A stretch of DNA of 64,000 nt, taken from NCBI RefSeq assembly GCF_023705585.1, contig NZ_BOQE01000001.1, forward strand, positions 3,318,710 through 3,382,709, given 5' to 3'. Source of the stretch: Collibacillus ludicampi (GTDB taxonomy: Bacteria; Bacillota; Bacilli; Tumebacillales; BOQE01). Below, in pieces: positions 19,420 through 46,452 of this stretch (the first letter of the stretch is position 1; every line of letters begins with the position of its first letter). The notes under the pieces were generated by a model. It made no database searches and was not told where the DNA came from. It saw only the letters and a list, made by a program, of their open reading frames with translations. The position numbers and the translations under genes were made by a program.

Positions 19420-19677
19420 GTGACTTTTGGGTGGGGTGTATCGCTTTGCAGCGCAGAGGTGAGTGTGTGAGACACCGACTTTGGAGATCGTCTCACTTCC
19501 TTTCGGATGTAAAAGGGTATATGCATTGCGTGTAATAGCGACTTTGAAGGTCGTCTCGCAACATATGATTATAATTCCATGCGAGACGACCTTCACGGAG
19601 CATAAGCGCAATGCATATACCCGCTGAAACGACCTCCACGGAGCGCGAACGCAAAGCATGCGCCCACCAAGCTACAC
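19420..19677. repeat. Nested hairpin element, copy A
   Basis: A two-level long inverted repeat. Outer arms begin GTGACTTTTGGGTGGGG...GCTTTGC and end GCAAAGC...CCCACCAAGCTACAC. Inside sits a second hairpin with perfect 15-bp arms GGGTATATGCATTGC (19515-19529) / GCAATGCATATACCC (19608-19622), an asymmetric internal loop, and a further perfect 15-bp stem GAAGGTCGTCTCGCA (19546-19560) / TGCGAGACGACCTTC (19580-19594). No protein is encoded. Related copies are at 19775-19907 and 45105-45327. Confidence 0.85.
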
Positions 19678-19678
19678 A

Positions 19679-19717
19679 TTTTCAAGGGAGCCACCCATGC
19701 CGCAAGCGGCACCATCA
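19679..19717. repeat. Conserved tail segment after hairpin A
   Basis: TTTTCAAGGGAGCCACCCAT then GCCGCAAGCGGC (small hairpin) and ACCATCA. It recurs at 19911-19949 after hairpin B and at 45006-45044 before hairpin C. Confidence 0.8.
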
Positions 19718-19774
19718 GAGGATGAAAAGTTTCTTGTGTGGGTAGTCAGATTTAAGCCCGCCACATGAGATATA

Positions 19775-19907
19775 GTGACTTTTGGTTGGATGTAATCACT
19801 TTGCAGCGCAGAGGTGAGTTGAAGGTCGTTCCGCAACATCTGTTTATAATGCGGGCGGAACGACCTTCATCGAACCCAAGCGCAAAGTGATACATCCAAC
19901 CAAGCAC
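19775..19907. repeat. Nested hairpin element, copy B
   Basis: The simplest copy. Outer stem TTGGTTGGATGTAATCACTTTGC-type arm (to 19804) pairs with 19882-19903; the internal loop has AGCGCAGAGGTGAGTT (19805-19820) on the 5' side and ATCGAACCCAAGC (19869-19881) on the 3' side; the inner stem is GAAGGTCGTTCCGC / GCGGAACGACCTTC; the apical loop is about 20 bases. Compared with A the outer and inner stems differ by paired changes. Confidence 0.85.
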
Positions 19908-19910
19908 TAG

Positions 19911-19949
19911 TTTTCAAGATTGCCACCCATGCCGGATGGGTGGCACCAT
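19911..19949. repeat. Conserved tail segment after hairpin B
   Basis: TTTTCAAGATTGCCACCCAT then GCCGGATGGGTGGC and ACCATA. Same segment as at 19679, with a changed small hairpin: CCACCCAT-GCCGG-ATGGGTGG. Confidence 0.75.
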
Positions 19950-19980
19950 AAAGTTGAGAGTTTCCAGAAAAAAATATATA

Positions 19981-44737: not shown

Positions 44738-44769
44738 AAAAAAGGAGACCTGAAAAGGCCTCCTTTTTT
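44738..44769 (+). terminator. Terminator of sucCD
   Basis: AAAAAAGGAGACCT / AGGCCTCCTTTTTT with a GAAA loop (one mismatch), directly after sucD. Confidence 0.88.
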
Positions 44770-45004
44770 CAACTCATTGCTCAATCCCCCTTCCTACAAT
44801 GGAAAGATCCTCATGTCGCTCATGTTAATGCAATCCGCCATGGCATTCAGTCTGCACTTTCAAAATCTTGAGTTTCTTCGATAAGGATACCTCTTTACTG
44901 CGAGGAAACAAGCTTGCAAGTCGTCATTGCATCTGTAATTTTTTCATAAGCGCGACGATTTTTCTTGACCTCGATCGCAATTAGGAATCCCCAGCAAACC
45001 AAAA
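44770..45004. other. Gap between sucCD and the hairpin element
   Basis: No gene or repeat is recognised; the element begins at about 45005. Confidence 0.4.
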
Positions 45005-45044
45005 GTTTTCAAGGTAGTCCCCCATGCCGCAAGCGGCACCATCA
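45005..45044. repeat. Conserved tail segment before hairpin C
   Basis: TTTTCAAGGTAGTCCCCCAT, GCCGCAAGCGGC and ACCATCA, as at 19679-19717. The linker that follows to 45104 also resembles the A-B linker (ATGAAA, TTTGCTTGTG, CTGCCACA). Confidence 0.78.
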
Positions 45045-45104
45045 AATGAAATTTGCTTGTGAGGAAAAAGAAGCTCAGTCTGCCACAAGCAATGGGGTTG
45101 ACAT

Positions 45105-45327
45105 CTGGGTGGGTCGTGTCGCTTTGCAGCGCAGAGGTGAGTTGAAGGTCGTTCCGCTTCCATTGGCTGTATTAGGGGCATATGCTTTGCGCGTATAGCG
45201 ACTTTGAAGGTCGTCTCGCAACATTCCTTTATTATTATAAGCGAGACGACCTTCACGGAGCATGAGCGCAAAGCAACGACCTTCATCGAACCCAAGCGCA
45301 AAGCGATACACCCACCCAAGCACTAAC
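45105..45327. repeat. Nested hairpin element, copy C
   Basis: Outer arms CTGGGTGGGTCGTGTCGC... (45105-45127) / GCAAAGCGATACACCCACCC (45298-45320). Type-I loop AGCGCAGAGGTGAGTT (45128-45143) / ATCGAACCCAAGC (45285-45297), stem GAAGGTCGTT / AACGACCTTC. A whole type-II hairpin sits in its loop: GCTTTGCGC (45184-45192) / GCGCAAAGC (45266-45274) and GAAGGTCGTCTCGC (45206-45219) / GCGAGACGACCTTC (45241-45254). It lies just upstream of dprA. Confidence 0.85.
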
Positions 45328-45363
45328 TCTCAAGCACTAATTTTCAAATAAGGAGGAACTGAG

Positions 45364-46452
45364 ATGCACGAGGAAAAAGGATATATCTTATGGCTTTCCC
45401 GTGTTCCGGGGATTGGCGCCATACGACTCAAAAGGTTACGGGAATTCTATGGATCTGCAAAAGCAGTGTGGAAATATGCTGAAACAAATGAATTGCTAAA
45501 CATCCAAGGAATCACTTCTGCGATCGCCCAGGCAATCATTGAGAGCCGCAGAGAATTTTCGCTTGAAGAAGAAATACAGCGCCTGACAAAGATGGGTGTT
45601 AACTTCTGTGTCATCGGTGATCCTGATTATCCGACTCCTCTTCTCTCCTTGTATGATCCCCCTCCCATCCTCTACATGAAAGGCAAATGGCTTCCACAAG
45701 ATGAAAAGGCACTCGCTGTAGTCGGCTCCCGAAAAACGACGAATTATGGACAGTTGGTCACAAGAAAGCTCATAACCGAACTTGTTCACTATGGAGTGAC
45801 GATTATATCCGGTCTAGCGCGCGGGATTGACAGTCATGCACATGAAGCGGCTTTACAGGCGAACGGTCGGACAATCGCTGTGTTGGCCGGTGGATGTGCA
45901 CGAATCTACCCAAGAGAAAATCACCGCCTTGCACAAAGAATCAGCGAAAATGGGGCGTTGATATCCGAGTACCCGCCGGAAACAGATGTTCGCGCGGGTC
46001 AATTCCCGGCGAGGAACCGGATCATCTCCGGTTTGTCAAAAGGAGTCATCATCGTGGAAGCCGGCCGCAAAAGTGGCGCCTTGATTACAGCCGATCAAGC
46101 GCTGGATCAAGGAAGAGACGTATTTGCCGTTCCGGGGCCCATCACCTCTCCCAATAGCCAGGGAACGAATGAACTGATCAAACAAGGGGCAAAAATGGTC
46201 ACAAGCATCGATGACATACTCGAAGAATATAAAAGTTGGATCGATCATAAGAAAAAAGCAAACGGACAAACAGCGACCATGTTCAGCCATCCTGTGATCG
46301 ATCTGATCGGATATGGGGCCGTGCATGTGGATCATCTCTATCGCAATCTGAATTTGTCTCTCCCCGAACTGCATAAACTGCTCTTGCACTTAGAACTATC
46401 CGGTGTCATTCGGGCTCTGCCGGGTGGCTACTATACGCGAGGGGATGTATGA
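45364..46452 (+). CDS. dprA: DNA processing protein DprA (Smf)
   Basis: 362 residues. N-terminal SAM-like helices (LWLSRVPGIGAIRLKRLREF), then the Rossmann-like DprA core LAVVGSRKTTNYGQLVTRKL, ISGLARGIDSHAHEAALQAN, AGGCARIYPRENHRLA, FPARNRIISGLSKGVIIVEA and QGTNELIKQGAKMVTSIDDI, and a C-terminal winged-helix-like domain. It loads RecA on incoming single-stranded DNA during transformation. AGGAGGAA site; upstream lies hairpin element C. It leads the dprA-topA-trmFO-xerC gene row typical of Bacilli. Confidence 0.97.
   Translation: MHEEKGYILWLSRVPGIGAIRLKRLREFYGSAKAVWKYAETNELLNIQGITSAIAQAIIESRREFSLEEEIQRLTKMGVNFCVIGDPDYPTPLLSLYDPPPILYMKGKWLPQDEKALAVVGSRKTTNYGQLVTRKLITELVHYGVTIISGLARGIDSHAHEAALQANGRTIAVLAGGCARIYPRENHRLAQRISENGALISEYPPETDVRAGQFPARNRIISGLSKGVIIVEAGRKSGALITADQALDQGRDVFAVPGPITSPNSQGTNELIKQGAKMVTSIDDILEEYKSWIDHKKKANGQTATMFSHPVIDLIGYGAVHVDHLYRNLNLSLPELHKLLLHLELSGVIRALPGGYYTRGDV

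What the first reader, a model, noticed from the sequence alone, without database searches (positions are those of the whole stretch)
45005..45327. Third copy of the nested hairpin, with a type-II hairpin sitting inside a type-I hairpin
The C copy lies 25 kb from A and B, upstream of dprA. Its outer unit has the B-type loop (AGCGCAGAGGTGAGTT / ATCGAACCCAAGC) and its apical loop is taken up by a complete A-type hairpin (GCTTTGCGC ... GCGCAAAGC with GCGACTTT / ACGGAGCATGA loop). A's outer unit seems to be a hybrid with yet another inner hairpin. This looks like insertion of one element into the loop of another, or growth by copying of modules. The TTTTCAAG...ACCATCA segment here precedes the hairpin, while after A and B it follows it, so the true repeat unit may be hairpin-tail-linker-hairpin, in tandem, with C a broken tandem array.
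Basis: partly seen in the sequence, partly recalled or inferred. Interest (0 to 1): 0.8.

Follow-up and report, generated by a model that had tools for sequence, protein, structure and literature searches.

The report
High-copy hairpin repeats with IS110 ends
The nested hairpin upstream of dprA is one of more than a hundred copies of a gene-less mobile repeat whose two ends are those of an RNA-guided IS110 jumping gene; the matching transposase survives here only as a decayed fragment, and the hairpin cargo has grown by stacking copies of itself inside its own stem.

Summary
Copy C (about 45014-45348) is not a broken array. It is the standard form of a dispersed repeat with at least 118 outer-hairpin cores in this 4.09-Mb genome (control pattern: 0). 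No other genome among 398 of its class has the hairpin. The unit is: left end (LE), 5' domain, outer hairpin holding zero, one or two (rarely three) inner hairpins, right end (RE).

The key result: LE and RE match, at both boundaries, the ends of complete 1.6-kb IS110-family insertion sequences in related genomes (LE about 90% over 43 nt; RE TTTTCARGATAG). The genome keeps a 144-bp decayed fragment of the matching transposase and no intact copy. Best explanation: a non-autonomous, MITE-like element moved in trans by an IS110 recombinase and its bridge RNA, now orphaned. Insertion at TTTTCAARRTAG, which the element's own RE recreates, explains the tandem arrays.

All 13 relatives in the order have sucD-dprA gaps of 62-208 bp without the element; here the gap is 635 bp.

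Inner hairpins lack LE and RE, so the nesting is module copying, not insertion of one element into another. Stems covary and the plus strand folds. No IS110-derived MITE was found in the papers searched. Any function of the cargo is unproven.

The parts
45006..45013 (+). left target flank TTTTCAAG (insertion-site motif)
   Evidence: sequence; logo of 67 isolated copies shows TTTTCAARRTAG before the element, with information falling to zero further out
45014..45058 (+). left end (LE) with core GTAG; matches the LE of IS110-family IS in relatives
45059..45104 (+). rest of the 5' domain (D5b), whose 3' part (CACAAGC) pairs back with GCTTGTG at about 45054-45060
   Evidence: fold; alignment
45105..45161 (+). 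outer hairpin, 5' arm (O5), with conserved internal-loop strand GCGCAGAGGTGAGTT
45162..45176 (+). variable linker that precedes every inner hairpin (small hairpin in most copies)
45177..45232 (+). inner hairpin, 5' arm (I5), loop strand GCGTATAGCGACTTT
45231..45275 (+). inner hairpin, 3' arm (I3), loop strand ACGGAGCATGAGCGC
45276..45320 (+). outer hairpin, 3' arm (O3), loop strand ATCGAACCCAAGC
45321..45348 (+). right end (RE) CACTAATTTTCAA, here in two tandem versions
19427..19678 (+). copy A: left-truncated hybrid (O5 outer half plus I-type, with one N-type hairpin nested inside) ending in an I-type right end
19679..19920 (+). copy B: complete simple unit LE-D5-O5-O3-RE, in tandem with A
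19911..19964 (+). truncated left end of a further unit after B
44738..44768 (+). sucD intrinsic terminator (host; relatives have one in the same place)
45364..46452 (+). dprA (host gene; its AAGGAGG lies just after the element's RE)

Best explanation
The element is a non-autonomous mobile element (MITE-like) with the two ends of an IS110-family insertion sequence and a non-coding palindromic cargo. Inferred mechanism: an IS110-type DEDD recombinase with its bridge RNA (whose donor guide would read about CAAGRTAG) recognised the RE-core-LE junction, excised and circularised the units, and inserted them in trans at TTTTCAARRTAG-like intergenic sites. Each insertion leaves TTTTCAAGRTAG at its right end, a fresh target, which gives tandem arrays. 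The parent IS has since decayed, leaving over a hundred orphan copies. The cargo hairpins lengthened by copying or recombination of arm modules inside the stem, keeping the arms complementary. Shown: copy number, unit anatomy, homology of both ends to real IS110 ends, fossil transposase, empty orthologous site, target-like junction motif, stem covariation. Inferred: movement in trans, the donor guide of the lost parent, the route of nesting.
For: 118 cores in the genome, control 0; only this genome among 398 of the class has the hairpin. LE pattern found in three relatives, control 0; four of those loci open onto a complete IS110 element with a 406-aa ORF, and that ORF has PF01548 + PF02371. 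Two G006 copies with different flanks share exactly TTAGACCTCC... to ...TTTTCAGGATAGAC. LE alignment scores 51-57 against a shuffled maximum of 26, and the LE is also present, more diverged, before annotated IS110 transposases of Alicyclobacillus dauci and A. fastidiosus. Those IS carry a donor guide that changes with their RE: CAGGATAGA for TTTTCAGGATAGA, CGGGATAGA for TTTTCGGGATAGA. Fossil cognate transposase at C1:1423860-1424027, 65% aa, one stop, 72% nt over 144 bp. Junction logos. Empty sucD-dprA gaps in 13 relatives. Movement of IS ends plus cargo with transposase and ncRNA in trans was shown experimentally for ISEc11, and ISEc21's ncRNA works in trans (PMC11187229).
Against: No intact cognate transposase in the genome, so present mobility cannot be claimed. 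No paralogous empty site was found inside the sequence examined. The hairpin cargo has no detectable relative in the IS110 leaders, so its origin is unexplained. RE homology is short (about 13 nt).
Confidence: 0.87

Rival explanations
1. The repeats began as IS110-ended elements but are now kept as RNA-level elements: folded in transcripts of neighbouring genes, they tune mRNA processing or stability.
For: Plus-strand folding bias: 43 G.T against 1 A.C cells in outer stems. Internal-loop strands invariant or nearly so across 37 copies while the apical loop varies. Co-directional gaps favour the sense orientation, 43 to 16. C ends right at the dprA ribosome-binding site.
Against: Orientation bias also holds in convergent and divergent gaps (29 to 12), where transcription cannot explain it. 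No conserved association with one gene class was looked for. No expression data.
Confidence: 0.15
2. REP/BIME-like palindromes spread by a Y1 (RAYT or IS200/IS605) transposase acting on single-stranded lagging-strand template.
For: Hairpins preceded by RTAG, replication-strand bias 72 to 28.
Against: No Y1 transposase in the genome. Both ends match a DEDD IS110 element, not an IS200/IS605 element.
Confidence: 0.03
3. A fixed regulatory RNA local to sucD-dprA.
For: Strong, covarying structure next to dprA.
Against: More than 100 dispersed copies; absent from the same gap in all 13 relatives of the order.
Confidence: 0.01
4. BOX-like composite repeat of unknown mobilising enzyme, the end similarity to IS110 being chance or capture of IS ends.
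For: Variable module number inside a stem resembles pneumococcal BOX (boxA-boxB(n)-boxC; PMC3049150).
Against: The match sits at both exact boundaries and covers both unit types (O and I), and a fossil of the cognate transposase is present.
Confidence: 0.04

Closest known systems
IS110 family insertion sequences with bridge RNA / seekRNA (IS621, ISEc21; PMC11208160, PMC11187229)
   Same: LE and RE sequences of a real IS110 subgroup, short core at both junctions, insertion at a preferred sequence, no terminal inverted repeats
   Different: No transposase gene and no recognisable bridge RNA; instead a non-coding nested palindromic cargo (units about 240-450 bp); over 100 copies
MITEs (e.g. MITEPye1 of IS1182, PMC11578231; MITECca01, PMC9769881)
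   Same: Small, gene-less, high copy, ends borrowed from an IS, dependent on a transposase in trans
   Different: Parent is an IS110 type, which lacks terminal inverted repeats; no clear target duplication; cargo is recursive
Pneumococcal BOX elements (boxA-boxB(n)-boxC; PMC3049150)
   Same: Modular, variable number of inner modules between two outer modules that fold together, dispersed
   Different: Inner modules here are nested in mirror order inside the stem, not in tandem; the mobilising family is identified
REP / BIME / REPIN (RAYT)
   Same: Dispersed intergenic palindromes, clusters, strand bias
   Different: No Y1 transposase; much longer; IS110 ends

Membership tests
IS110-family derived non-autonomous element | left end homologous to that of a genuine IS110 IS | tested here: met
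   about 90% over 43 nt with L246/L248
IS110-family derived non-autonomous element | right end homologous and at the exact boundary | tested here: met
   TTTTCAAGRTAG against TTTTCAGGATAG at the boundary set by two G006 copies
IS110-family derived non-autonomous element | core shared at both junctions, no longer target duplication | tested here: met
   RTAG at both junctions, flanks otherwise unrelated
IS110-family derived non-autonomous element | cognate IS110 transposase present, or evidence of its past presence | tested here: met
   fossil, 65% aa, one stop; no intact copy
IS110-family derived non-autonomous element | mobilisation in trans | not testable with these tools
   needs an experiment; precedent in PMC11187229
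Autonomous IS110 | DEDD transposase ORF between the ends | tested here: not met
   no such unit in the 1.2-Mb census; genome-wide the cognate transposase is found only as a fragment
IS110 bridge RNA | loop with donor guide identical to the element's own RE-core | tested here: not met
   no CAAGRTAG-like guide in O or I loops by inspection; outer-hairpin CM finds nothing in IS110 leaders; only a weak ATAGC in I5
REP/RAYT | Y1 REP-associated transposase | tested here: not met
Rfam RNA families | match to a curated model | tested here: not met
   none at gathering threshold; none for C at E <= 1

The most novel reading that the evidence does not exclude
The nested hairpin is not inert cargo but a structured RNA or single-strand element that the IS110 recombinase-bridge RNA system, or its regulation, recognises. 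The repeats would then be RNA-level parasites of an RNA-guided transposon, with variable nesting depth setting their activity.
Probability: 0.13. Interest if true: 0.85.

Novelty: new variant of a known kind. Interest (0 to 1): 0.64.

Why it matters
IS110 elements are the source of bridge-RNA recombination tools, yet no natural IS110-derived miniature elements turned up in the papers searched. A family of over 100 copies sharing minimal ends gives a large natural data set on which end sequences and target motif such a system accepts in trans, and suggests that RNA-guided IS have gene-less passengers. The recursive, mirror-ordered hairpin growth with covarying arms is an unusual form of palindrome evolution. 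It also shows how such elements settle right next to ribosome-binding sites, as at dprA.

Tried and rejected
Rfam scans of copies and of IS110 leaders: nothing useful. Y1 transposase search: none. Reverse transcriptase: only group II intron-like fragments, no link to the repeats. TnpB: one copy on another contig. Terminator-targeting idea: only 10 of 73 copies have a terminator just upstream, against 0 in shuffles, so terminators are a sub-set of T-rich targets and not the rule. Search for paralogous empty sites: none. Search for an autonomous copy with an ORF between the ends in a 1.2-Mb census: none. Outer-hairpin model against relatives' IS110 leaders: only chance scores. Plasmid, phage and viral collections: no copy of the repeat. 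Literature searches for IS110-derived MITEs: none found. One alignment of relatives' leaders was made with two of three sequences on the wrong strand and discarded; a first alignment of own copies likewise.

Full report
What is there. The region 45005-45327 holds the structure described: an outer hairpin with arms 45105-45127 / 45298-45320, conserved internal-loop strands, and inside it a complete inner hairpin with perfect 15-bp arms 45205-45219 / 45241-45255. The + strand folds at -145.3 kcal/mol (z -10.6, 0 of 100 shuffles as good); the - strand at -136.6 (z -6.5). Copies A and B are a tandem pair at 19427-19920.

It is a dispersed repeat. BLAST with copy C against its own genome gave 101 matches although only 40 of 203 candidates were scored. 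A 22-nt outer-core pattern occurs 118 times (43+/75-), the reversed control 0. Alignment of 30 copies shows that C is the standard form. Among 60 relatives only one weak 48-nt match was seen, which later proved to be the key. A covariance model of the outer hairpin found it in this genome only, of 398 of the class.

Anatomy of a unit. In 86 loci (about 100 copies) the unit is LE - 5' domain - outer hairpin - RE. The outer hairpin holds nothing (45 cases), one inner hairpin (28), two nested (12), or unbalanced arrays. A second unit type has a short LE joined straight to an inner-type hairpin, and ends ACACATTTTCAAG. Both types share LE and RE. In a 1.2-Mb census there are 84 clusters with 63 LE, 52 O5, 96 I5, 103 I3 and 63 O3 modules, some with extra tandem 3' arms. 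57 of 78 complete units stand alone on both sides.

Nesting. Inner arms fall into subtypes that occur in mirror order: K5-N5-N3-K3, M5-N5-N3-M3, K5-M5-M3-K3, apart from cases where an arm is lost or extra. Inner hairpins have no LE or RE, and the apical loop of the simple form is replaced (TTCCGC-AACCTCTG... against TTCCGC-TTCC...), so whole-element insertion is not the route. On 73 inner hairpins 8 of 30 pairs change on both sides (67 cells, 22 expected by shuffling; slid controls 0-8 cells). Intrastrand templated correction of quasi-palindromes could also produce such pairs; that it has not erased the conserved, non-complementary internal loops argues for some selection on them (inference). 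G.T pairs outnumber A.C mismatches 43 to 1 in outer stems and 99 to 20 in inner ones, 61 of the 99 being one nearly fixed pair, so the + strand is the folded one.

What moves it. The weak relative hit covered the LE. A pattern for the LE found it in G002, G006 and G008 of the same order, control 0. At L232/L236 (G006), L238 (G008) and L239 (G002) it is the first stretch of a complete IS110-family element with a 406-aa transposase; the G008 protein bears PF01548 and PF02371. Two G006 copies with different flanks define the ends: TTAGACCTCCATGCCGC... and ...ATTTTCAGGATAGAC. The repeats match both: LE scores 51-57 against a shuffled maximum of 26, RE TTTTCAAGRTAG against TTTTCAGGATAG. A recognisable, more diverged LE stands before annotated IS110 transposases of Alicyclobacillus dauci (79% aa) and A. 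fastidiosus (65% aa). The IS leaders contain a donor guide that tracks the RE: CAGGATAGA with RE TTTTCAGGATAGA, CGGGATAGA with RE TTTTCGGGATAGA, as the bridge RNA model predicts (PMC11208160). G008 also has a short LE-RE derivative without a transposase gene (L249).

In the window's genome, IS110 genes of other types exist, at least two of them broken, but the cognate type survives only as a fragment at C1:1423860-1424027, 65% identical to residues 323-377, with a stop, 72% at DNA level over 144 bp. The parent, or a close relative of it, was therefore once there.

Insertion sites. For isolated copies, the left flank reads TTTTCAARRTAG with information dropping to zero outside it; the right side reads ...CACTARTTTTCAAGRTAG and then nothing. 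The target thus resembles the element's own right end, so every insertion offers a new target at its edge: a simple account of the tandem arrays (inference). All 13 relatives of the order keep sucD next to dprA with 62-208 bp between them, without the element; here the gap is 635 bp. The element accounts for about 335 bp; about 240 bp before it are unexplained.

Orientation. The origin lies near 1.475 Mb by GC skew. Copies are co-directional with replication 72 to 28, and 29 to 12 (p = 0.012) in convergent or divergent gaps, where transcription is balanced. Gene calls here are simple ORF calls. Strand-biased targets or a replication-coupled step could both explain the bias; I cannot separate them.

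Comparison with the known. It works like a MITE of an IS110 element. IS ends with cargo do move when transposase and RNA are given in trans (PMC11187229). The papers searched contain no natural IS110-derived miniature element; that is absence in one library, not proof. The cargo has no Rfam match and no match in the IS110 leaders. BOX elements of pneumococcus are the closest structural analogue, but their inner modules are in tandem, not nested (PMC3049150).

Verdict. Observation confirmed; interpretation partly right. A new variant of a known kind, with an open question about the nested cargo.

Noticed in passing
window 45321-45348; also L053, L063, L091, L095, L096, L115: The right-end motif CACTA(G/A)TTTTCAA is duplicated in tandem in several copies, possibly the remnant of a deleted second unit.
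   Followed up: partly
own genome C1:708234-708634: A unit with two 5' inner arms but five tandem 3' inner arms, a sign of one-sided arm duplication.
   Followed up: no
L208 and G008 loci L222-L230: Relative G008 has its own small dispersed hairpin, GTGACGTGAAGC...GCGAATTCCGAGTAC (10 hits at up to 3 mismatches), two of them in its sucD-dprA gap.
   Followed up: partly
L249 (G008 C134): A short LE-RE derivative of the IS110 element without transposase, so a miniature form arose in a relative too.
   Followed up: partly
L084, L093, L111, L135 flanks: Other short dispersed similarities (about 50-100 bp) next to some copies hint at a further repeat family in this genome.
   Followed up: no
own genome C1:1738856-1740513: Two group II intron-like reverse transcriptase fragments close together.
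   Followed up: no
own genome C2:83541-83741: A single TnpB-like (PF07282) gene on a small contig; no Y1 transposase was found anywhere in the genome.
   Followed up: no
window 44769-45005: About 240 bp between the sucD terminator and the element have no assigned origin; the gaps of relatives are much shorter.
   Followed up: no
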